This document shows positions 2,713-28,060 of a DNA stretch of 34,626 bases, piece by piece. This DNA is from a virus, in the IMG/VR virus record IMGVR_UViG_3300005860_000055, positions 1 to 34,626 of that record, one strand, 5' to 3'. How positions within the stretch are numbered: position 1 is the stretch's first letter; the number at the start of each line of letters is the position of its first letter. The position numbers and the translations under genes are program-made. The notes beneath the pieces were generated by a model that saw nothing but the letters and a program-made list of their open reading frames with translations, was not told where the DNA came from and searched no databases.

Positions 2713-2862
2713 GTGCCTAAGAAGTTAGACCGTTGTATCAGGAAAGTAATGCGGAAGGGTTATACTAAGTCTCAAGCGTATGCGATATGTTCTAAGTCAA
2801 CAGGATGGGTTCGTGGCAAAGGCGGGAAGTGGGTAAAGAGGAAGAAGAGGAAGAAGAAATGA
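2713..2862 (+). CDS. Small basic Cys-containing phage protein
   Basis: A 49-residue protein starting at GTG with a ribosome site (ggaggtaag) six bases before it. The core LDRCIRKVMRKGYTKSQAYA followed by IC matches a frequent phage mini-protein pattern (C...vm..G....sAy.IC). The tail is a run of Lys/Arg (RKKRKKK). The biochemical role of this class is not known to me. It overlaps the next gene by ATGA. Confidence 0.65.
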   Translation: MPKKLDRCIRKVMRKGYTKSQAYAICSKSTGWVRGKGGKWVKRKKRKKK

Positions 2863-4341: not shown

Positions 4342-4554
4342 ATGGGGGAGGTGATTAGGTGTTTTCATTGTGGCAAAGAGAGGACTAAAAGTGCTGAGGG
4401 TAAATTTATAGATGGTAGTTGGGTTGATGATTGGCGTCTAAAAAATACTGAGGCGTGGGGCAAATGGGTATGTTCTGTGCATTGTTTTTGGAGAGTGGTT
4501 CATACATATGGTTGGGATTTTGATGACTGTTGTGGGAGTTGGTGTGATGCTTAG
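4342..4554 (+). CDS. Small Cys/Trp-rich putative zinc-binding protein
   Basis: A 70-residue protein. The start is the ATG after aaaggaggtgagaggt. Cys pairs CFHCGK near the start and CSVHCFW in the middle could form one zinc site of the CxxC-CxxxC kind; a further CCGSWC lies at the end. It is rich in Trp. It lies inside the lysis cassette between two coiled-coil membrane proteins; its role is unknown. Confidence 0.55.
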   Translation: MGEVIRCFHCGKERTKSAEGKFIDGSWVDDWRLKNTEAWGKWVCSVHCFWRVVHTYGWDFDDCCGSWCDA

Positions 4555-4930
4555 ATGGCTTAAGTGGATGATAAGTGTTTTATTGGGAAGTTTATTGATA
4601 ATAGGGAATGTTTATGCATATGAAGTGTGTTTTTCTGAGGAGCAGGCGAAGCAGATAATAGTAGAGCTGAAACAGAAGCGTGTATTAGAGCAGGAAGTTC
4701 AGGAGTATGAAGCGTTGATTGAGAATTTGAAGAAGCAAAATGAGATACTGAAGGAGCAAAATCGATTGTTGAAAGAGCAGATAGAGCTTTACAAAAATCA
4801 AAAGCAGTTATATGATACGGCGTTGAAGGAGTGTGAAAAGAGACAGAAGGTTGGTTTATTTGAGAAAGGCAAGTGGTTTATATATGGTGCTGTTAGTGGA
4901 TTAATATTTTTGACGCTTTGGGTGAAATAG
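4547..4930 (+). CDS. Signal-peptide, coiled-coil, C-terminal-membrane protein (spanin-like)
   Basis: A 127-residue protein if it starts at the ATG at 4547, which overlaps the previous stop; an upstream in-frame ATG at 4508 would add 13 residues. Residues 1-25 look like a signal peptide (WMISVLLGSLLIIGNVYAYE, cleavage after AYA-like VYA). A long coiled coil follows (ALIENLKKQNEILKEQNRLL). A C-terminal membrane segment (WFIYGAVSGLIFLTLWV) closes the protein. This layout could span the periplasm from the outside in, a unimolecular spanin-like design. It is the last gene of the lysis cassette. Confidence 0.55.
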   Translation: MLRWLKWMISVLLGSLLIIGNVYAYEVCFSEEQAKQIIVELKQKRVLEQEVQEYEALIENLKKQNEILKEQNRLLKEQIELYKNQKQLYDTALKECEKRQKVGLFEKGKWFIYGAVSGLIFLTLWVK

Positions 4931-4931
4931 C

Positions 4932-4960
4932 TTGACAGGTGTAGAAGATGAAATTATATT
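4932..4960 (+). promoter_or_regulatory. Sigma70-type promoter of the head operon
   Basis: TTGACA (4932-4937), a 17-base spacer and TATATT (4955-4960). The expected start is near 4967-4968, at the G run that begins the large inverted repeat. It is the only consensus promoter seen on the + strand and lies just after the lysis cassette. Confidence 0.75.
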
Positions 4961-4967
4961 GCAAGTA

Positions 4968-5149
4968 GGGGGGCACTGAGTATATGTTTGCTAATTTTAG
5001 TTTGCAAAAGTGAAAATATTAAAAGAAGACTATAACAAGGAGGGGCGGCTATGGCACGCAGGAAGAGAAGAAAAAAGAGAACTTCTCGTAAGAAGAAAAG
5101 ATAATTGTTCATGAGCAATTATTTTTACATACTCAGTGCCCCTCTTTTT
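4968..5149 (+). ncRNA. Structured leader enclosed by a 14-bp inverted repeat
   Basis: GGGGCACTGAGTAT (4970-4983) is the exact reverse complement of ATACTCAGTGCCCC (5129-5142); a G-U and a G-C pair extend it to 16 bp. The 3' arm is followed by TTTTT (5145-5149) and then by the ribosome site of the next gene. The 5' arm starts where the promoter should start transcription, so the RNA's own 5' end would pair with a site 150 nt later. Inside lie a mini-gene (5051-5104) and a nested hairpin (5097-5126, 13 pairs with G-U, loop CATG) that covers its stop codon. It could act as a terminator or attenuator for the capsid genes or as a stable small RNA. Confidence 0.6.
5051..5104 (+). CDS. 17-residue Arg/Lys peptide MARRKRRKKRTSRKKKR
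   Basis: The ATG follows a strong ribosome site (aaggaggggcggct). The product has 13 basic residues out of 17 and no acidic ones, like phage DNA- or RNA-binding mini-peptides. Its whole gene sits in the loop of the 14-bp inverted repeat, and its stop codon is in the stem of a nested hairpin. It might bind packaged DNA, or the RNA that encodes it. The short length means chance cannot be excluded, but the ribosome site argues for translation. Confidence 0.5.
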   Translation: MARRKRRKKRTSRKKKR

Positions 5150-5162
5150 GTAGGAGGTGCCT

Positions 5163-5588
5163 ATGGCAGAAAAAGAAGAAATTTTAAGAGCTTTAGGGTT
5201 AGACAAGCCTGTGCCACCCCCGACTGGGAGTGGACCTATATCGCCCGATGTTTTAAGGGCGGAATTAGGAGGTCCTGCACCAGCTGGGTTGGATGCGCTT
5301 AAGGAAGGAATGATGGCGTTTATGTATCTGTTAGCTCAGACTGTAGCTACTACTCCTCCTTATGATGAGCTAACAGAGGCAAGTTTGGATATTATGAAGC
5401 GGATAGGGAAGGTAATAGATGTGAATGAAGCTTTGATTAAGGCTCAGATTGTGATGGGTGGTTTAGGTGCGAGTGCACCTATGGCGGGTGCACCTATGGC
5501 AGGAGGTTCTACGCCGACGCCGCCGACACCACCTGTAGAAGGAGCTTCACCTGAGGGAGCTCCTGATTTAGAAGGCATTGAAGTTTAG
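5163..5588 (+). CDS. Head-operon protein with Pro/Ala/Gly-rich tail
   Basis: A 141-residue protein. The ATG at 5163 is chosen because it lies seven bases after taggaggt; a GTG six bases earlier overlaps the ribosome site. Residues 1-100 look helical (KEEILRALGL; LDALKEGMMAFMYLLAQTVA). Residues about 102-141 form a low-complexity tail (APMAGAPMAGG; TPTPPTPPVEG). It is the first larger gene after the structured leader. Function is unknown; a head accessory or minor virion protein is inferred from position. Confidence 0.6.
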   Translation: MAEKEEILRALGLDKPVPPPTGSGPISPDVLRAELGGPAPAGLDALKEGMMAFMYLLAQTVATTPPYDELTEASLDIMKRIGKVIDVNEALIKAQIVMGGLGASAPMAGAPMAGGSTPTPPTPPVEGASPEGAPDLEGIEV

Positions 5589-5602
5589 AGGAGGTGATAA
5601 CA

Positions 5603-5764
5603 ATGGCTAAGAGAGCAAAAACTAAAGTTTTTACTCCAGAGAAGTATTCTGGAATTATTACCAGCAAGTCGGCTCCTCTATCTGGAGGGCAGATTGCTGG
5701 TAAAGATGAGCCTATTTATGAGAATTTTATTAAGCCTTCTCGTGGGAAGAAAGGCAGAAAGTAA
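5603..5764 (+). CDS. 53-residue basic protein of the head operon
   Basis: The ATG follows gaggaggtgataaca. Basic clusters at both ends (MAKRAKTKVF; SRGKKGRK) flank a small polar core (TSKSAPLSGGQIAGKDEP). No family is recognised. It sits between two head-operon genes with an intact ribosome site and an in-frame length of 54 codons. It may be a minor capsid or DNA-associated protein. Confidence 0.6.
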   Translation: MAKRAKTKVFTPEKYSGIITSKSAPLSGGQIAGKDEPIYENFIKPSRGKKGRK

Positions 5765-5780
5765 AAGAGGGGGATAATTT

Positions 5781-6299
5781 ATGGAAGAGAAGACTATTAA
5801 TTTAGACCAATTAGGTATCCAAGCCTTACAGAAGCTTATTGAGGAAATTCAGTATGACGATGAGTTGAGAGAGAAGTTTAACCAAATACTAAAAGACACT
5901 GAGTATTATATTCCCCCGCCAAAAGAGAAAAAAGTAGAGGAAAAAGTTAAAAACGAGATAAAAAAGATTGAAGAGGAAAAAGAAGAGATAAAGACAAAGC
6001 TTCAAGCTCTTGAAAACGAGAAAAAGCTTCAGAAGGCTTATGAGATAATGGACAAATACAATATTCCTCGTGAGATGATTGCTGAGGTAGAAAAGTATGC
6101 GAGGGAAAATGGCATTCAGAAGTGGGAGACTGCTTGCAAGCTTTATGCTTTAGAGCAGAAGCAGTTGCAATCGTTGACTATTAATCAGCCTCCTCACAAG
6201 AAAAATAAAGACTTAATAAGCCGTTATGCAGGTGAGGAGGGGAAAACTAATTTGAAAGAAGATTTGCTACAAGTTTACAGAAGCATTGTAAACTTTTAA
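5781..6299 (+). CDS. Scaffold-like coiled-coil protein
   Basis: A 172-residue, highly charged protein placed directly before the major capsid gene. A long Lys/Glu helix (EKKVEEKVKNEIKKIEEEKE onward, residues about 50-100) is followed by a helical C-terminal part ending in LLQVYRSIVNF. Such a layout before the capsid gene is typical of phage scaffolding proteins, which guide procapsid assembly and then leave. No protease domain is present. The start ATG follows agagggggataattt. The assignment is by composition and position. Confidence 0.6.
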   Translation: MEEKTINLDQLGIQALQKLIEEIQYDDELREKFNQILKDTEYYIPPPKEKKVEEKVKNEIKKIEEEKEEIKTKLQALENEKKLQKAYEIMDKYNIPREMIAEVEKYARENGIQKWETACKLYALEQKQLQSLTINQPPHKKNKDLISRYAGEEGKTNLKEDLLQVYRSIVNF

Positions 6300-6325: not shown

Positions 6326-7420
6326 ATGCCAATAACACCTTATGTAACTGACATAGGAGGCGGTTTTCGAGACACCGCCACTTTAACCAGATGGTTGAAT
6401 GTAACTCGAAGAAACCTTTTGATGTATGCTTTAGCTCAAAACTTACCTAAAGTATCAGCGTTGTTTAAGCTTTTGATTGAGAAGCAAGACAGTCAGCCAT
6501 TCCAGCATGATTTTGTGATTTTCCCTGTGTATGGCGGTCCTGATGCAACTAACCAAGCTAACATGCAACCTCGTTATATCGACTTCACTACAGGAACTTT
6601 CACCAAACAAGACTACTTTGTAGATGTTGAGTATGCGAGGTTTACACCTTCTGGGTTGTATCAGACATTTACTGTGAACTTCTTTGAAGGGCTAATTATG
6701 GAAAGTCCGAATAACATTATTGATACTGTGCAATTGAAGATTGAGGAAGCGATTAGACAGATGTTCCTTGCTTTGCAAACTGATTTGATGGGTTCAAGAG
6801 GGACTAACGACCAGAAGTTTTATGGGTTAAAAGACATCATTGACAATGGAGTTAACCAGCCAACTTTTGGTGGATTAGATAGAGCTACTCATCCTTGGTG
6901 GAACAGTCCAATTTATAACTACAACGATTTACTTGCGGGTGATACTGGTATACCTATCTATGCAGTAATTAACCGTGGAATTAATAAGTATTGGAACGAC
7001 CACGGTAATGTTTACGGTATGCCAAAAGTTGGATTTACTGACACGATGACTTTTGCTAAGATTGCTGAAAGCTTTATGGCTTTTGAGAAATACATTGTTG
7101 GCGACATTAGAAGCATCGCAGACATTAGGGAATACAACATTAGAGGAATTGATATCGGCGGTATAGCAATCTTTCCTGACCCATATCTGCAACCATATAC
7201 AGTGGGAACTCAAACTGTTGGTGATATTTACTTCATTAACTTTGACCACATTTTCTTCACTGGAGCAAGCCCAATTGAGTATTACATGCACGAGTGGTGG
7301 TCTGAAGTTGTGAACGGAAAACTTGCATTTAGTTCTCTCTGCTTGCTCACAGGGCAATTTTATACTGATAGACCGAGAGCGCATTTTGTGATTAAAGGTG
7401 TTCCATCTATGGGCATTTAA
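6326..7420 (+). CDS. Major capsid protein (HK97-fold type)
   Basis: A 364-residue protein at the usual place after the scaffold. FYGLKDIIDNG followed by TFGGLDRATHPWWNS is the common segment of many phage coat proteins (fdGL..ii......yGgidR.t...W). The C-terminal half (IGGIAIFPDPYLQPY; IYFINFDHIFFT; RPRAHFVIKGV) fits the beta-rich axial and P domains. The ribosome site is aaaggaggtgtaagg. Codon use is richer in C than its neighbours (aac, ttc, gac), as expected of the most highly expressed gene. A strong hairpin follows at 7429. Confidence 0.85.
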   Translation: MPITPYVTDIGGGFRDTATLTRWLNVTRRNLLMYALAQNLPKVSALFKLLIEKQDSQPFQHDFVIFPVYGGPDATNQANMQPRYIDFTTGTFTKQDYFVDVEYARFTPSGLYQTFTVNFFEGLIMESPNNIIDTVQLKIEEAIRQMFLALQTDLMGSRGTNDQKFYGLKDIIDNGVNQPTFGGLDRATHPWWNSPIYNYNDLLAGDTGIPIYAVINRGINKYWNDHGNVYGMPKVGFTDTMTFAKIAESFMAFEKYIVGDIRSIADIREYNIRGIDIGGIAIFPDPYLQPYTVGTQTVGDIYFINFDHIFFTGASPIEYYMHEWWSEVVNGKLAFSSLCLLTGQFYTDRPRAHFVIKGVPSMGI

Positions 7421-8341: not shown

Positions 8342-9737
8342 GAGTAAAAAAGTTGTAAGCATTCATGCAGATAAAAAATATAAAGGTCTTGGGGACTTAT
8401 TTTATATTGAGAGCCCTATTCTTGGGCTTGCAACCAATTTAGAAGATACTAAGCGTGAGCCGTTTCATGCTTTAGAGCTTTACGCTTTGCCTGATTTGCG
8501 TTACGGTTGGATAAGTATCCCGAAAGAAACTGCTCTATCTTTGAGTTCAATTAATCACAATCAACTAAGCTCACCTGTTAATTATCTCGTTGGTTGGTCA
8601 GGTAGTAATTTGTATATTTACGATTTAGAGAGACAAAGCATCGAATACCAAATTAATTTAGATGGGGTCATTAATTCAGCTATTTTCATAAACGATGTCA
8701 CAATTGCTTGTTTAGTGTCTGCAACTAATCCGTTGAGAATAATTTTCTACAAGTCAGGTGTTCAGAAAAGTTACAATAAAAATGGGACTTGTCTTGCATC
8801 TTTTAAAGGTCGTCTTTTTATTGGTGAGGGTAAGGTTTTGCATTTTACGAGTGCAAGCATTACAGACCCTAATTTTGCTGATGACCCGTTTGCTACTGCT
8901 AATGGTGGCGGGTATTTAATTCTGAATTATCCTCAGGTTTCAAAGATTTGTTATCTTTTGCCATGGGAAGACATGTTGTATATCTTTACAGATGGTGGGT
9001 TATATGTTTTGACTGTTTCTTTGGCGAGCAATTCTCCTTCAACTTTTTACATTATCGATGCGGGTATTAATTACGACTTTTCTAAAGCGAAGGTTTTGCA
9101 AACAGGAAACAGGTTAGTGATTGTTTCAAGCGTTGGCATATTTTATTTATCTGGCATGAATTTGGAGAGGATAGATTGGATAGTTGCTGACCAATTGAGT
9201 AATCTTGATTTTGTCAAATCTGGATGCGGTTATTATCAGGGGCAAGGATTTCTTTTGGTTCCTTATTTATTGCAAGACAAAACTTTGGCTTACAGTTTTG
9301 AGTATGGGCAATTTTTCTATTTGCCTTTTAAGGTGACCAATTGTGTTTTTACTCCGAGTGGCAAAACTTATGATTTTTCCCAGTCGTATCTCAGATTGCT
9401 TTTTAGCAATAACGATTTTTATTACAAATTTCAGTATATGTCAGTGCTTCATGATTATGGGCAAAATCGGTTCAAGTATATTAGAGAAGCATGGGTAAAT
9501 GGGCATGGTAATTTTCAAGTAAGTTTTTTGTATGATAATTTTGGTGCTTTTCAGAGTAGATTTTATAGTGCTATTGGTCCTGATTTGTCTACTTATCGGT
9601 CGAGTTTTGGGAGGAAGGGATATAGGATTGGCATTCAGATTGTTTCTGATGATAGCGGAACATTTGCATTTGTGAACAAAATCAATTTAAGAATACATGT
9701 GCTTGGGCATGTCAATTATTTTTACTATACGGGTTAG
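8334..9737 (+). CDS. Propeller-like tail protein (tail hub/nozzle or DNA-stabilisation type)
   Basis: A 467-residue protein built of repeated beta elements: SFKGRLFIGEGKVLHFTSAS, then DPNFADDPF, LLPWEDMLYIFTDGGLYVLT and GNRLVIVSSVGIFYLSG. This pattern (R.f...g..v.fs....p..f; d.lyif...gl.vl) is that of podovirus tail nozzle or gp10-like propeller proteins that close the tail tube. It follows the adaptor gene directly with overlap, as those proteins do. The C-terminal part has another beta-rich segment (SFGRKGYRIGIQIVSDDSGT). Confidence 0.6.
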   Translation: MAKSKKVVSIHADKKYKGLGDLFYIESPILGLATNLEDTKREPFHALELYALPDLRYGWISIPKETALSLSSINHNQLSSPVNYLVGWSGSNLYIYDLERQSIEYQINLDGVINSAIFINDVTIACLVSATNPLRIIFYKSGVQKSYNKNGTCLASFKGRLFIGEGKVLHFTSASITDPNFADDPFATANGGGYLILNYPQVSKICYLLPWEDMLYIFTDGGLYVLTVSLASNSPSTFYIIDAGINYDFSKAKVLQTGNRLVIVSSVGIFYLSGMNLERIDWIVADQLSNLDFVKSGCGYYQGQGFLLVPYLLQDKTLAYSFEYGQFFYLPFKVTNCVFTPSGKTYDFSQSYLRLLFSNNDFYYKFQYMSVLHDYGQNRFKYIREAWVNGHGNFQVSFLYDNFGAFQSRFYSAIGPDLSTYRSSFGRKGYRIGIQIVSDDSGTFAFVNKINLRIHVLGHVNYFYYTG

Positions 9738-17988: not shown

Positions 17989-18253
17989 TCCTGACAAAGA
18001 GACGCTTAAGCTTATTCAGAAGTTTTATATTTTGCTTGAGAGTGCTCATCCTGCAAGGCGAAGGATTATTGCTACGAAGATACTCGAAGAGTTTATGCCG
18101 TTTGTCGTAGGAAAAGGCGGGAAAGTAGACAGTAGATACGATGCAGATGTGTTTACTCGGGCTAAGCAAGTTGGTAGTTATTTGATAAATCATTACGGCA
18201 AGGTGGGATATCTTTTGCTCGAATACTTCATTAAGTATCATGAGATATGTTGA
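17981..18253 (+). CDS. Possible small terminase subunit
   Basis: A 90-residue helical basic protein (ETLKLIQKFYILLESAHPAR; VFTRAKQVGSYLINHYGKVG) placed immediately before, and overlapping by seven bases, the large terminase. Position is the main argument for a TerS role, that is DNA recognition during packaging. No classical helix-turn-helix was recognised and the protein is shorter than most TerS, so it is listed as a candidate only. Confidence 0.4.
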   Translation: MINPDKETLKLIQKFYILLESAHPARRRIIATKILEEFMPFVVGKGGKVDSRYDADVFTRAKQVGSYLINHYGKVGYLLLEYFIKYHEIC

Positions 18254-19998
18254 GAGAGCTAATCAAGAAATTTTGGGCTTGGTCAAAGTATCTGAAAATC
18301 AACTCGAAAGATTACGGTCTTATTAAGTTTAGTCCTGAAAGGTGGTGGGGTTCTCAGAAGTGGTTGCTAAAGGCTATTTATACTGCTGAAGATGATCAGA
18401 GGACTTTTGTAGTTCTCAAGGCAAGACAGCTTGGTATTACTTCTCTTTGTAATGCATTAACGCTATTTTATCATCAGTTCATTCCTAATTCTAAGGGAGC
18501 TGTTTTTGTAGCGAATTACAACGACATTGATTACATCAGGAAGACTATCGTTCATGATTTTTATGACATGCTTGATGAAAAGGTTAGGGTGATGTTGACG
18601 CATAGTTCAAGGGAGGGGTTGCGTTTTGCTAATAATTCTACCATTCATTTTATTTACACTTCGAAGCGAGTTACAGGGCAGGGCAAGGCTGGGCGTGGTA
18701 GGGGTTATAATTTTCTACATGCGACTGAGGTTGCGTATTTTAACTCATGGGAGGATTTGAATGCGATACAAGCTTCTCTTTCTGATGTGCATCCTTATCG
18801 GCTCTACATTTATGAGAGCACTGCTAATGGATATAACGAGTTTTATGACCTCTATGAGATAGCGAAGACTTCGCCAGCAATGAAAGCTGTTTTTATTGGT
18901 TGGTGGACTAAGGAAACTTATCGATTGAAGCCTGAGAGCAACATTTACAAGCATTATTCTTATCCGCCGAATAAAGAGGAGAAAGAATGGATTAAGGCTG
19001 TTAAGCAATTATACGGTTATGAGATAACGATGGAGCAGTTGGCGTGGTGGCGTTATCAGATGTGGGATAGGTATCGTGGACATAAGATGTATGCTTTGCA
19101 AGAGTTACCATTTTTTGAAGACCAAGCATTCCAGCTATCTGGAGACAGATTTTTTGATGCTGTTATTTTGAAACAGTATGAAGATGAGATTAAAAAAGAG
19201 CTTGCTAACGGAGCTATTAGAGAAAAGCACTATAGGCTTACTTATGATGGGGAAAGGTTTGTATTTGAGGAGACTGGTTCAGACAAGGCGAATTTAACTA
19301 TTTGGGAGTTTCCTTCAGCTCATTGTGTTTATGTTTTAGGGGCTGATCCGACGATGGGAGCTAACCCTGACAGTGACAACGCTGTAATTTCTATTTGGCG
19401 ATGCGAAGAGGACAAAATAATTCAAGTTGCTGAGTTTGTGGATAATCAGGTGCCTCCTCAGATTTTTGCTCGGTATATTTTGCTTTTAGGTGGGCTTTAC
19501 AATGGGGCTTATGTAAATTTGGAAGTAACGGGACCTGGGCAAACAACTTTGAAGGAGTTTGATTATTTGCGTTCGCAAGGATGGGTGCCTGAAGTTGTAA
19601 TGGATGAAGTCACGAAAGAAGTTCTACAAAACAACATCAAATACATACGAGATTATCTTTATTACAGAGCAGATAGCTTCAGGCGGAGCTTTTTGAGGCA
19701 TTGGAAGACAACTCCTGATTTGAAGGTTGATTTAATGCAGATGTTTAAAGGATGTGTGCATGAAAAAAAGACGGTGATAAGGTCGAGGGCTTTATTGAAG
19801 GAGATGGCTAAGGTTGTGAAGGATGGCTCAGTGATAGAGGCTGAGAGCGGGTTCCATGATGATAGAGTTATTGCTGGGGCTTTAGCGGTTGAATATTGGA
19901 TAAGATACTTAAGAGGCAAGGTGCATTCATTGAAGCGGAGCTTTTCTTTAGGTCAGAAAGTTCTCAGAATTGGCAACGTGACTATTCCGCTTCACTAA
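18247..19998 (+). CDS. terL: Terminase large subunit
   Basis: A 583-residue packaging motor ATPase and nuclease. Residues about 55-70 hold FVVLKARQLGITSLCNALTL, the TerL variant of Walker A (KARQLGiT). YNFLHATEVAYF (about 157-168) is Walker B with the catalytic Glu. VLGADPTMGANPDSDNAVIS (about 362-380) starts the RNase H-like nuclease with its first metal Asp, and SGFHDDRVIAGALAVEYW near residue 540 holds the later Asp pair. The length is normal and no break is seen. It is the last gene of the rightward block; its stop overlaps the stop of the opposing gene. Confidence 0.92.
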   Translation: MLRELIKKFWAWSKYLKINSKDYGLIKFSPERWWGSQKWLLKAIYTAEDDQRTFVVLKARQLGITSLCNALTLFYHQFIPNSKGAVFVANYNDIDYIRKTIVHDFYDMLDEKVRVMLTHSSREGLRFANNSTIHFIYTSKRVTGQGKAGRGRGYNFLHATEVAYFNSWEDLNAIQASLSDVHPYRLYIYESTANGYNEFYDLYEIAKTSPAMKAVFIGWWTKETYRLKPESNIYKHYSYPPNKEEKEWIKAVKQLYGYEITMEQLAWWRYQMWDRYRGHKMYALQELPFFEDQAFQLSGDRFFDAVILKQYEDEIKKELANGAIREKHYRLTYDGERFVFEETGSDKANLTIWEFPSAHCVYVLGADPTMGANPDSDNAVISIWRCEEDKIIQVAEFVDNQVPPQIFARYILLLGGLYNGAYVNLEVTGPGQTTLKEFDYLRSQGWVPEVVMDEVTKEVLQNNIKYIRDYLYYRADSFRRSFLRHWKTTPDLKVDLMQMFKGCVHEKKTVIRSRALLKEMAKVVKDGSVIEAESGFHDDRVIAGALAVEYWIRYLRGKVHSLKRSFSLGQKVLRIGNVTIPLH

Positions 19999-22876: not shown

Positions 22877-25600
22877 TTAAAAAGGTATGCCATCATCAGG
22901 CGTCGGAATGTTAATCTGTTTGGAGTTCCACTCTTCTTCCTCCTCTTCCTCGGGTATCGTTATCATTTGAGACAAAGGATTAGGTCTCCCTGTGCTCCTT
23001 TGTATCGCTCCTGCAAGCTCTTCAGCTATGTTCTCAGATATTTTCTTTAAGTCAAACTCATAAACGGATACCGTCATCTCCGTCCCTGCGTATTTAATCT
23101 TTTTCGCTTTGGTATATCTCTTAACTGCCCCTGTCGCATCAGTCGTATAAAATACAGATATCACTCCCGCCTCTTCAAAAAGCTTTAAAATAGTCCTCAA
23201 ATCAAGCTTTACAAAATCCCTAAAATATTCTAAACACTCCCGTGTTATATAAGCTTTCTCGGCTATCGGATCTATCTCCCCAAATACTAAATTCCTCGGA
23301 ATTTGTTGATCAAGCGAATTCCTGATGACAAAATGCGGAGCTCTTGAAAGCAAAAACTCAGTAAACATAGACAAAAATCTCTCGATGCTCAAATCAAGCT
23401 TCTCTAACTGAAAAGATAACAACGCACAAAGATTTCTCTCAAGCATCCTTATCTCTTGCTGTGAAAGATTGTAAAACTTTTTCAGAAAATTAAAGCTCTT
23501 TTCTATCAACGGCGTAAAAGTAAAAATTTGAAAATGCTCAGGCAATTCTATCTCAATCTCAACTTCACCTTCTTGCTCAAGAAACTTAATATAGTCAAAT
23601 GCACAACCACAAGCAATCCTCATCATCTTATGCAAATCCTGAGGTCCTACTTTTTCTGTATAGTTACCCCAATGGTCAACAGGAACCACAACATATCTTC
23701 TTTCAGCTCCTCTCCTTTCAAATTGAGGGTCTACTTCACCCGTTATGAAAACGACAGATTTAAGCAAAGTGATATCTACTGATAAGTCTTTTGTGCCTCT
23801 TAACTTTCCTACTCCTCCCGCAATTTTGAAAACACGCTCTTGAAGTTTGCTGTCTGATATTAGAGCTGTCTCATCAAAAAGAACGGGCAAATTGTGAAAC
23901 CGTCTCATATAAAGCTCAAATCCTGTCTCAGTCGCATTCAAAGTCATCGGAACATTCACATTGTAAAAAAGGCTCATTACAAACTGTGAAGTCGTTGTCT
24001 TCCCCACCCCACGGGGTCCCACATCAAAAACAGTAAAACCTGAAAGATTGTCTTCAATAAATAAACTTGCTACCCCTAACACTATTTTTACTCCAAGCCA
24101 TCGCCCTTCAACTAATAACTCTCTGACTAATTCATGCTGTTTTGAAGCGTTAACATATTTGAAATGCTCAACTTCTTTTGGGTCAAGGTCGCAGTATAAT
24201 CCATGCTCAATCAAGGCGCTCTGATTTAGCGGATGTATAAACAAACGTTTGCTCCCTGTTTTATACCAGCCAATATCCGATAAAAACAGTTTTTCTTGGT
24301 GATTGCGAATTAAAGCATCAAGTAGAAACTTGAGATTAGCTGTATCTAAAATGGGTCGCCCAAGAAAATTCTGCAACTCAACTGTATCAAGACCAATCCT
24401 TCCTACTCGCCTTGTCTCGCAATTGTATACAACATAAACAGGCTCGTTAGTATTAGGCTTAAATCCTCTATCTTTTAGCAAAAATCCAGCGCAAACAGGC
24501 TTTAACTTTTTAGGCTTTTTGTCTTCTTTATCTTTCTCGCTATCAACCAGCATATACCAGTCATTCTCAATCAAAGCGAATACTTTAGTCCCATGCTTAA
24601 TGATTTCCTGAGCTCTGCCGAGGTCATCCTCAGTATAAACTGGAACCCCTGGGATTTTGGGCTTAGAAAGTCTACCTAAAATAAATGAGGCAGTCCGTGC
24701 GTCTTCTTCATTGAAAACTTGCTGAGTAAGAATACTGATGCCTGCTACTTCTTCTATTGACTTCTTGTAAGTCTCTTCTATTGCTGATAAGCGTTGTTTG
24801 TAGCTATCATCATCGCTTAAATCTTCATATAATTCTTTTTTCAAAATGTCTTCTACTACTTCACGAGGCAAGAATAACTTTCTTGCTATTCCTGCTAAAC
24901 CGAGCCAAATTGTCTGTCTCAATCCTTCTACATAGTATTTTTTGCAAAGCTCAACTATTTGTAAAAACTTGGATACTTTTGTCTCATCACCTACTTTCGG
25001 TGCGAATACTTGAACATTAGCTTGAACTCTCTCTGTTTCGTATTCTTTGCCAGCTCGCTTGTATGCTTTGATAAGAAGCTTTTTATATGCTTCGAAGTCA
25101 AGTAAGGCAATGTTTAACTCGTGTTTAAAAACATCGTAGCCATCGATGAAAACATATTTGTGAATGCCACCGTTAACTCTAACTTCCGAAGGGGGTGCTA
25201 CTGCATATCTGCGACCGAATAGGAATTCGATTTTGAAAACTTCATCTGGGTCATTAAGCTTAATTGAGCGTTTTTCAAAATCTTCAGGGACATTATAAAG
25301 TCCATACCAATAATGATGCCCCCTTCGGGTTTTAACTGTGACTGTCGGGATAAATTCTTCCTGAGCTTCGAACCAAGTAATAGCCTCGGGGCTATCGCAG
25401 TCGATAATCAGCAAATTATTAAATCCCGAGACTATGCCAATATTGCCTTGATGCTTCTCCCAGTAATATTCGACTTGTCCTGTATCGTAAACCTTCTCTA
25501 AATCGAACCCTTTAATAGGGACTTTAGAGTGCTGAGCGAGAGGGATTACAACGAGACCATATTTACGATACAGACGCAAAAACTTTTTTAATTCGCTCAT
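22877..25600 (-). CDS. Primase-polymerase / helicase replication protein
   Basis: A 907-residue fusion. The N-terminal AEP-type prim-pol domain (bifunctional primase-polymerase, PF09250-like) begins YRKYGLVVIPLAQHSKVPIK. LLIIDCDSPEA (about 62-72) gives the metal-binding DxD and TVKTRRGHHYWYGL (about 87-100) the conserved His. A middle region links to an ATPase: FDVGPRGVGKTTTSQFVMSL (about 520-540) is Walker A, LPVLFDETALI (about 568) Walker B, and FITGEVDPQFERRGAERRYV carries the sensor and Arg-finger region, as in DUF927/SF3-like helicases. Together they would prime and unwind at the origin. The C-terminus is acidic (EEEEEEEWN). No separate DNA polymerase gene is seen. Confidence 0.85.
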   Translation of the reverse strand: MSELKKFLRLYRKYGLVVIPLAQHSKVPIKGFDLEKVYDTGQVEYYWEKHQGNIGIVSGFNNLLIIDCDSPEAITWFEAQEEFIPTVTVKTRRGHHYWYGLYNVPEDFEKRSIKLNDPDEVFKIEFLFGRRYAVAPPSEVRVNGGIHKYVFIDGYDVFKHELNIALLDFEAYKKLLIKAYKRAGKEYETERVQANVQVFAPKVGDETKVSKFLQIVELCKKYYVEGLRQTIWLGLAGIARKLFLPREVVEDILKKELYEDLSDDDSYKQRLSAIEETYKKSIEEVAGISILTQQVFNEEDARTASFILGRLSKPKIPGVPVYTEDDLGRAQEIIKHGTKVFALIENDWYMLVDSEKDKEDKKPKKLKPVCAGFLLKDRGFKPNTNEPVYVVYNCETRRVGRIGLDTVELQNFLGRPILDTANLKFLLDALIRNHQEKLFLSDIGWYKTGSKRLFIHPLNQSALIEHGLYCDLDPKEVEHFKYVNASKQHELVRELLVEGRWLGVKIVLGVASLFIEDNLSGFTVFDVGPRGVGKTTTSQFVMSLFYNVNVPMTLNATETGFELYMRRFHNLPVLFDETALISDSKLQERVFKIAGGVGKLRGTKDLSVDITLLKSVVFITGEVDPQFERRGAERRYVVVPVDHWGNYTEKVGPQDLHKMMRIACGCAFDYIKFLEQEGEVEIEIELPEHFQIFTFTPLIEKSFNFLKKFYNLSQQEIRMLERNLCALLSFQLEKLDLSIERFLSMFTEFLLSRAPHFVIRNSLDQQIPRNLVFGEIDPIAEKAYITRECLEYFRDFVKLDLRTILKLFEEAGVISVFYTTDATGAVKRYTKAKKIKYAGTEMTVSVYEFDLKKISENIAEELAGAIQRSTGRPNPLSQMITIPEEEEEEEWNSKQINIPTPDDGIPF

Positions 25601-27309: not shown

Positions 27310-27642
27310 TTAGCTCACTCTGCTTAAGACCAGATCAAAGTCAAGCTCTCTGAGCTCCTCCTCAGAGAGCACCTTGCCCTCAGGTAATCTTGTTCTGAGG
27401 ACAAAATGGATGGCACTGTCGCCCTCTTTCATTTTTACGGCAATTCTGTTGAAGGGTATCTCTACCCCAAGAAGCTCCGTGAGCACTTTGGCTGTCGCCT
27501 CGTGCCCAACGGCTGATGTGAAAGGCATCTCTCGGATAATCCTCCGAGCCGTCTCAAGGTCAATCTTCCACAGGGATACCACATACCCCTGCTTATTCTG
27601 AAAATCAACTGGGACGATAAGAGAATTGAGAATGTAAAGCAT
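27310..27642 (-). CDS. AcrIII-1 family anti-CRISPR ring nuclease (DUF1874)
   Basis: A 110-residue protein, the normal length of DUF1874 (STIV B116, SIRV1 gp29). The family degrades cyclic tetra-adenylate, the alarm signal of type III CRISPR, and so silences Csx1/Can1-type effectors. SAVGHEATAKVLTELLG places His at residue 47, the position of the catalytic His in SIRV1 gp29. NRIAVKMKEGDSAIHFVLRT followed by RLPEGKVLSEEEL is the conserved second half, with Arg85 and Glu88. The start ATG at 27642 follows the standard leader of this phage (ggaggtggggct). The upstream ribbon-helix-helix ORF runs into it in frame with no stop, so a fused form is possible. It lies in an operon from the promoter at 28226. 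Confidence 0.88.
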   Translation of the reverse strand: MLYILNSLIVPVDFQNKQGYVVSLWKIDLETARRIIREMPFTSAVGHEATAKVLTELLGVEIPFNRIAVKMKEGDSAIHFVLRTRLPEGKVLSEEELRELDFDLVLSRVS

Positions 27643-27813
27643 AGCCCCACCTCCTTTTTGTTGTTTTTTTTGCTGAATTAACTCCCAAATGCCTTCCTTT
27701 AAAAGGTCTGACTTCGTCCGCCCGAACATTCGGGCAATTTTGCAAAGCTTCCGATATAGAATAGGGTCCACATTAGACCCTATTCTTCCTTCTGCTGTTT
27801 TTTCCTTCCCCAT
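27310..27813 (-). CDS. Ribbon-helix-helix protein in frame with the ring nuclease (167-residue fused ORF)
   Basis: The ATG at 27813 follows taggagaaagct. Residues 1-48 are RHH/CopG-like: EGRIGSNVDPILYRKLCKIA is the strand and first helix, and FGRTKSDLLKEGIWELIQQ the second. Residues 49-57 (KKQQKGGGA) are the translation of what elsewhere is the non-coding leader (A run plus ggaggtggggct), and residue 58 is the ring nuclease Met. So one ORF may give a full fusion plus a free nuclease by internal initiation, or the RHH stop has been lost. A run of eight A in the junction could also allow slippage. RHH proteins often repress acr operons (Aca role); that is inferred here. Confidence 0.65.
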   Translation of the reverse strand: MGKEKTAEGRIGSNVDPILYRKLCKIARMFGRTKSDLLKEGIWELIQQKKQQKGGGAMLYILNSLIVPVDFQNKQGYVVSLWKIDLETARRIIREMPFTSAVGHEATAKVLTELLGVEIPFNRIAVKMKEGDSAIHFVLRTRLPEGKVLSEEELRELDFDLVLSRVS

Positions 27814-27958: not shown

Positions 27959-27972
27959 ACTTCCTCCTCTCA

Positions 27973-28046
27973 AGCCCCTGGGGGGATTTGAACCCCCAAC
28001 CCTGGGATTAGAAGTCCCATGCTCTATCCTGTTGAGCTACAGGGGC
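27973..28046 (-). tRNA. tRNA-Arg (anticodon UCU)
   Basis: Full cloverleaf on the minus strand. Acceptor GCCCCTG / CAGGGGC, D arm GCTC-GAGC, anticodon stem TGGGA / TCCCA with loop CTTCTAA (anticodon TCT at 28012-28010), T arm GGGGG-TTCAAAT-CCCCC. CCA is not encoded. It reads AGA (and AGG by wobble), codons used heavily in this phage. It lies inside the accessory operon, between a 46-residue gene and the RHH genes, so it would be cut from the same transcript. Confidence 0.95.
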
Positions 28047-28060
28047 TCTCTCAAAAAAAT

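What the first reader, a model, noticed from the sequence alone, without database searches (positions are those of the whole stretch)
4932..5149. Promoter-born RNA whose 5' end pairs with a site 150 nt downstream, enclosing an Arg/Lys peptide gene
A consensus promoter starts at the first base of a perfect 14-bp inverted repeat. The second arm carries a terminator-like T run directly before the capsid operon's ribosome site. Within the loop are a mini-gene for a 17-residue basic peptide and a second hairpin over its stop codon. This could be an attenuator in which translation of the peptide, or the peptide binding its own RNA, controls head-gene expression; or a stable structural RNA with 5'-3' pairing, as in packaging RNAs.
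Basis: partly seen in the sequence, partly recalled or inferred. Interest (0 to 1): 0.78.

Follow-up and report, generated by a model that had tools for sequence, protein, structure and literature searches.

The report
Phage RNA clamp around tiny peptide gene
In phages of the hot-spring bacterium Hydrogenobaculum, the start of the virus-shell gene message pairs with a site about 150 bases downstream, closing a loop around a 15-25 residue, highly positively charged peptide gene; the pairing is kept across relatives although its sequence has changed, so it is a real, apparently undescribed RNA device.

Summary
Confirmed and strengthened. A strong promoter should start RNA at about 4967. Its first ~17 nt pair with 5129-5145, just before the ribosome site of the head operon. 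All six available relatives (IMG/VR contigs; capsid protein 80-96% identical) keep the layout: promoter, 5' arm, strong SD, 15-25 aa Arg/Lys peptide, AU-rich linker, 3' arm, head-operon SD. Compensatory changes maintain the helix: 117/131 cells paired, 13 of 22 columns changed on both sides, cognate duplexes -31 to -37 kcal/mol. The peptide is under purifying selection (window vs L002: 7 synonymous, 0 nonsynonymous codons). The T-run after the 3' arm and the hairpin over the stop codon are not conserved, so an attenuator/terminator is unlikely. Best explanation (inferred): a translation-compatible 5'-3' mRNA clamp that protects the late transcript's 5' end and keeps an anti-SD tract off the head-operon SD. 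The peptide class is more widespread: freshwater phages with a ~21% identical capsid protein carry two 12-14 aa basic peptides at the same locus, with a covarying H-type pseudoknot between them. Host: Hydrogenobaculum, by a 92% identical terminase. Rfam matches neither clamp nor pseudoknot. New variant of a known kind.

The parts
4932..4960 (+). sigma-70 type promoter TTGACA-17-TATATT
   Evidence: 11/12; a promoter-like pair at the same place in all six relatives, -10 end to arm 5-9 nt in six of seven, 20 nt in L004
4967..4983 (+). 5' arm of the clamp helix, at or next to the predicted transcription start
4984..5036 (+). A/U-rich leader loop between 5' arm and the peptide's SD (arm to AUG 67 nt; 44-71 nt in the seven phages)
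5037..5043 (+). Shine-Dalgarno of the peptide gene (AAGGAGG), in the loop
   Evidence: SD present in all seven
5051..5104 (+). 17-aa basic peptide gene MARRKRRKKRTSRKKKR
   Evidence: synonymous-only codon differences from L002; basic peptides at the same locus in freshwater relatives
5101..5122 (+). A/U-rich hairpin over the stop codon; shared only with L001, so probably not essential
5129..5145 (+). 3' arm of the clamp helix; its C/U tract is also complementary to the next SD
5152..5157 (+). Shine-Dalgarno of the head operon's first gene (AGGAGG), 2-8 nt after the 3' arm in all seven
5163..5588 (+). first head-operon gene (141 aa, function unknown, upstream of scaffold-like and capsid genes)
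5781..6299 (+). scaffold-like coiled-coil protein (172 aa)
   Evidence: position immediately upstream of the capsid gene; name inferred
6326..7420 (+). major capsid protein
   Evidence: phrog_9953, E 5.9e-14

Best explanation
The element is a cis-acting leader of the late (head) transcript: a 5'-terminal RNA clamp that encloses a minigene. The first ~17 nt of the RNA pair with a segment 124-169 nt downstream that ends 2-8 nt before the SD of the head operon. A ribosome can initiate, translate and terminate on the peptide gene inside the closed loop, because 44-71 nt separate the 5' arm from the AUG and 20-36 A/U-rich nt separate the stop from the 3' arm. The clamp most likely (i) hides the 5' end of the transcript from 5'-end-dependent decay and (ii) holds the C/U-rich 3' arm away from the head-operon SD, which it could otherwise mask. 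The peptide is an independent, conserved product, probably a nucleic-acid-binding packaging or condensing peptide. Shown by sequence evidence: the layout, the coevolving helix, selection on the peptide. Inferred: the start site, co-transcription with the head operon, 5' protection, control of the SD, the peptide's role.
For: Seven phages share the layout. Cognate arms pair at -31 to -37 kcal/mol, arms of different clades at -10 to -30, most of them weaker than -21. 117 of 131 cells are paired versus 44-56% when the partner is slid; 13 columns have changes on both sides. The arm begins 5-9 nt after the -10 box in six of seven. When the 3' arm and SD are folded without upstream sequence the SD is mostly paired in six of seven (mean unpaired 0.00-0.28 at 37 C); with the whole leader it is freer in window, L002, L003 and, at 65 C, also L001 and L006. 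The peptide's SD is predominantly unpaired at 65 C in the clamped form (0.59-0.90). No conserved terminator.
Against: No RNA data. L004 has a predicted tail of about 12 nt before the arm and its SD stays mostly paired even with the clamp (0.08 at 37 C, 0.24 at 65 C); L005's SD is open with or without it. In the window, removing only the 5' arm hardly changes the SD (0.57 to 0.59 at 37 C) because other pairings compete. Complementarity of the C/U arm to any SD may be a by-product of a purine-rich transcription start. Only seven genomes in about four lineages.
Confidence: 0.45

Rival explanations
1. Fold-back-inhibited mRNA, as in type I toxin mRNAs (hok, aapA): the 5'-3' pairing keeps a stable but silent message until the 3' end is processed, then the peptide is made.
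For: Same overall geometry (5' end paired near the 3' side, short ORF inside), and a CU-rich 3' tract acting as anti-SD is the described mechanism in aapA mRNAs (PMC6733600).
Against: The peptide's SD lies in the loop, not in the paired arm, and is mostly open at 65 C in the clamped fold. The peptide is purely basic, not a hydrophobic membrane peptide. Minus-strand promoter-like sites in the loop are weak (9/12). The pairing segment is followed by an operon, not by a transcript end.
Confidence: 0.1
2. RNase III processing site: the 14-20 bp helix is cut, separating the peptide message from the head-operon message, as in early phage RNAs or the icaR 5'-3' duplex.
For: Near-perfect 14-20 bp duplex in all seven; a 5'-UTR/3'-UTR duplex is an RNase III substrate in icaR (PMC3868564).
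Against: The duplex is shorter than two helical turns; cleavage would leave part of the anti-SD tract before the head-operon SD.
Confidence: 0.2
3. Transcription terminator or attenuator whose upstream half is the start of the RNA, controlled by peptide translation.
For: Window and L002 have a T-run directly after the 3' arm.
Against: No T-run in L001, L003, L004, L005, L006; loop of 124-169 nt is far longer than that of intrinsic terminators.
Confidence: 0.08
4. A stable structural RNA of about 180 nt (packaging-RNA-like), with the ORF incidental.
For: 5'-3' terminal helix; fold z -5.55.
Against: ORF kept by synonymous change and SD kept in all; loop A/U-rich and unfolded; ordinary terminase.
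Confidence: 0.07
5. The clamp binds its own product or a capsid protein and gives feedback control of head genes.
For: Arg-rich peptides can bind RNA helices (general knowledge); in the freshwater relatives an RNA pseudoknot also sits next to the basic peptide genes.
Against: No direct evidence; arm sequences differ strongly between clades while peptides stay generically basic.
Confidence: 0.1

Closest known systems
5'-3' long-distance interaction of type I toxin mRNAs (hok/Sok, aapA/IsoA)
   Same: 5' end of the message pairs with a distant 3' segment, enclosing a very short ORF; a CU-rich segment can act as anti-SD (PMC6733600)
   Different: here the peptide SD is outside the helix, the peptide is basic and not toxin-like, the message continues into the head operon, and no strong antisense promoter was found in the window
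icaR mRNA 5'-UTR/3'-UTR pairing in Staphylococcus aureus
   Same: long-range pairing of transcript ends through a C-rich (UCCCC) tract with a G-rich 5' segment; the duplex can be an RNase III substrate (PMC3868564)
   Different: there a 7-nt motif pairs with the SD of the enclosed gene and represses it; here a 14-20 bp helix at the transcript start leaves that SD in the loop
5'-terminal stem-loops that stabilise bacterial mRNAs (ompA type)
   Same: 5' end hidden in a helix, next to a strong SD (general knowledge)
   Different: partner strand is 124-169 nt away and a whole gene lies in the loop
phi29 pRNA
   Same: 5' and 3' parts joined by a helix, phage late functions
   Different: no folded loop, translated ORF inside, different packaging motor; no Rfam match
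Microvirus DNA-condensing protein J
   Same: very short basic peptide encoded beside capsid genes (general knowledge)
   Different: J is about twice as long and belongs to ssDNA phages; no sequence test possible at this length

Membership tests
Rfam family (any of 4227) | score at or above the gathering threshold | tested here: not met
   only the tRNA at 27973-28046 in the window; best weak hits E 1.8 or worse over the element
Intrinsic terminator/attenuator | G+C-rich stem with short loop followed by a U-run | tested here: not met
   U-run in two of seven phages only; loop 124-169 nt
Type I toxin mRNA (hok/aapA) | SD of the enclosed ORF sequestered by the long-distance interaction | tested here: not met
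   SD in the loop, mostly open at 65 C
Type I toxin mRNA (hok/aapA) | antisense RNA promoter opposite the gene | tested here: inconclusive
   weak 9/12 sites on the minus strand of the window; not scanned in relatives
Type I toxin mRNA (hok/aapA) | small hydrophobic membrane-active peptide | tested here: not met
   peptides of Arg, Lys and few other residues
phi29-type packaging RNA | packaging ATPase without an ordinary terminase; RNA bound to the portal | tested here: not met
   large terminase phrog_2 / Terminase_6C at 18247-19998; portal binding not testable
5'-3' long-range paired bacterial mRNA (functional kind) | coevolving pairing of the transcript start with a distant downstream segment | tested here: met
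   transcript start itself predicted, not measured
RNase III processing site | cleavage in the duplex | not testable with these tools
   needs RNA end mapping

The most novel reading that the evidence does not exclude
A pseudo-circular messenger: an RNA clamp built so that ribosomes initiate, translate and finish a 15-25 codon gene inside a closed loop, while the same clamp switches on the head operon by holding an anti-SD tract; and the peptides (12-25 aa, mostly Arg/Lys) are a previously unrecognised, very widespread class of phage minigenes at the head-operon boundary, each lineage with its own RNA structure (clamp in Hydrogenobaculum phages, H-type pseudoknot in freshwater phages).
Probability: 0.3. 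Interest if true: 0.8.

Novelty: new variant of a known kind. Interest (0 to 1): 0.64.

Why it matters
Long-range pairing of the two flanks of a gene is rarely supported by covariation in phages. Here a tiny gene is boxed in by a coevolving helix whose spacing fits a ribosome, at the head of the structural operon. It gives a compact, testable model of how a bacterial message can be clamped and still translated. It also draws attention to 12-25 residue basic peptides, missed by gene annotation (not annotated in MW202753 or MW202825), that are conserved in a large group of freshwater phages and may take part in DNA packaging or head assembly.

Tried and rejected
MAFFT alignment of the whole leaders misaligned the arms; arms were aligned by hand around the shared GGC..CUGA core and tested with slid and non-cognate controls. 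A mobile element with terminal repeats was rejected: same place in all seven phages, no second copy found in the 4500-5700 region, no target duplication seen at the ends. A conserved upstream ORF starting at the end of the 5' arm was considered: ATG present in window, L001, L002, L003, L005 but the reading frames differ, and absent in L004 and L006, so not conserved. Terminator reading rejected (no T-run in five of seven). More members of the thermophile clade were sought with the capsid protein, its alignment, a scaffold DNA pattern and two terminases: the same six contigs came back, plus HP1, whose record lacks the head region. Genome contigs gave nothing. Other capsid relatives (Mx8, BUCT555, Mwe-JY13, ppBjS10J-1, ct52p938, TM7 phage) have no such basic minigene in the stretches scanned. 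A blind duplex scan of freshwater loci gave low energies spread over long G+C-rich flanks and was not interpretable as clamps. Literature searches found no report of the element; most subscription papers are not covered.

Full report
What was checked. All are in the sequence. The promoter is the best of the 39 sites found in 18 kb (11 of 12 consensus positions). The total number of sites is no more than chance, so its weight comes from its position and conservation. The 14-bp repeat is the longest within 600 nt in the window, but 4 of 30 shuffled windows also hold one of 14 bp or more; one sequence alone would not settle the matter.

Host and kin. The large terminase of the window is 92% identical to that of Hydrogenobaculum phage 1 (HP1, KP282676), a contig from an Icelandic spring assigned to Hydrogenobaculum by CRISPR spacers (PMC7689252). 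The HP1 record lacks the head region (its capsid gene was not found). Six IMG/VR contigs carry capsid proteins 80-96% identical: L001, L002 (closest), L003, L004, and L005 with L006. A large group of phages, called freshwater here after its named members MW202753 and MW202825 from Manatee Spring, is a distant relative: terminase 31-34%, capsid about 21% identical, same order of the four genes ending in the capsid gene.

The clamp is real. In all seven phages a promoter is followed by a 5' arm, an A/U-rich leader, a strong SD, a peptide gene beginning MARR, an A/U-rich linker, the 3' arm and, 2-8 nt later, the SD of the same head-operon gene. Between clades the arm sequence is largely replaced: GGGGGGCACUGAGUAU, GAAGGGCGCUGAGU, AGAGAGGCUGCUGAAAU, UAGUGGGGAGGCAUCUGA. 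Each 3' arm has followed. Cognate duplexes are -31 to -37 kcal/mol; arms exchanged between clades give -10 to -30, most of them weaker than -21. On a hand alignment 117 of 131 cells form standard pairs, against 44-56% when the partner is slid by 1-3 positions and 71% for non-cognate clades. Thirteen of 22 columns have changes on both sides. Random pairing of the flanks reached the observed energy in 0 of 2000 shuffles for six phages and 1 of 2000 for L001. The alignment is by hand and the lineages are about four, so the counts are not independent events. The replacement of so many pairs on both sides is nevertheless hard to explain without selection for pairing.

The peptide is real. Codon differences between the window and L002 are 7 synonymous and 0 nonsynonymous, between the window and L001 6 and 1. 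Lengths differ by whole codons (15-25 aa). Freshwater relatives carry, at the same place, usually two still shorter genes, typically MYKKMKRGRKTRR and MARKARKGRKARK, with SDs, in most of the 60 loci examined; they are not among the annotated genes of MW202753 and MW202825. More distant capsid relatives do not have them in the stretches scanned.

How it may work. The first paired base lies 5-9 nt after the -10 box in six of seven phages (20 nt in L004), so the transcript probably begins in the helix. Such 5' ends are poor substrates for 5'-dependent decay (general knowledge). The loop leaves 44-71 nt between 5' arm and AUG and 20-36 nt between stop and 3' arm, enough for an initiating and a terminating ribosome (inference from usual footprints). 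The 3' arm ends in a C/U tract that can pair with the head-operon SD. Folded without upstream sequence, that SD is mostly paired in six of seven phages; with the leader it becomes freer in several, clearly in L002 and L003, least in L004. I therefore propose protection of the 5' end plus release of the head-operon SD as the most likely roles, at 0.45, with RNase III processing (0.2) as the main rival. An attenuator is unlikely because the T-run is missing in five of seven.

Comparison. The nearest known designs are the 5'-3' long-distance interactions of hok and aapA toxin mRNAs and of icaR (PMC6733600, PMC3868564). The present one differs in that the SD of the enclosed gene is left in the loop, the peptide is not hydrophobic, and the message probably goes on into the head operon. 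No Rfam family matches. I file it as a new variant of a known kind.

Side finding. In the freshwater relatives the two basic peptide genes are separated by a compact H-type pseudoknot (S1 GGGG/CCCC-like, S2 GGCUGACUU/AAGUUGGCC-like), parsed in 67 distinct sequences. On 24 chosen sequences 91.3% of cells pair, six pairs change on both sides, and the covariation score is 0.310 against 0.121 in shuffles and at most 0.117 when slid. Ten loci of the group gave no Rfam hit. It usually ends about 20 nt before the second peptide's start codon.

Limits. No transcript data exist here; start site, co-transcription and function are inferred. Folding at 65 C uses extrapolated parameters. Hosts of the six contigs were not tested other than by kinship to HP1.

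Noticed in passing
L009:4820-4854, L030:3521-3553 and 65 further distinct loci: Compact H-type pseudoknot with strong covariation between two 12-14 aa basic peptide genes of freshwater phages; no Rfam match in ten loci scanned. Candidate new cis-regulatory RNA motif.
   Followed up: partly
L009:4758-4799 and 4878-4919; L008:8277-8318 and 8396-8437; L016-L095: Pairs of 12-14 residue Arg/Lys peptide genes (MYKKMKRGRKTRR, MARKARKGRKARK) with SDs upstream of the head operon in most freshwater relatives with enough upstream sequence, not annotated in the two GenBank records.
   Followed up: partly
L008:8455-8533, L009:4948-5010: In the freshwater relatives the second basic peptide gene is followed by a terminator-like hairpin and a fresh TTGACA promoter for the head operon, unlike in the Hydrogenobaculum clade.
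   Followed up: no
window 27310-27813 (-): STIV_B116-like protein (Pfam PF08960, E 5.3e-27), a family named for an archaeal virus, in a phage of Aquificota.
   Followed up: no
window 27972-28047 (-): Phage-borne tRNA-Arg (anticodon TCT), reading AGA, a frequent codon in the basic peptide gene.
   Followed up: no
window 2749-2862 (+): Second small basic ORF, MRKGYTKSQAYAICSKSTGWVRGKGGKWVKRKKRKKK, 37 aa, with an SD-like AGGA.
   Followed up: no
window 22877-25600 (-): 907-aa Prim-Pol plus DUF927 primase/helicase fusion.
   Followed up: no
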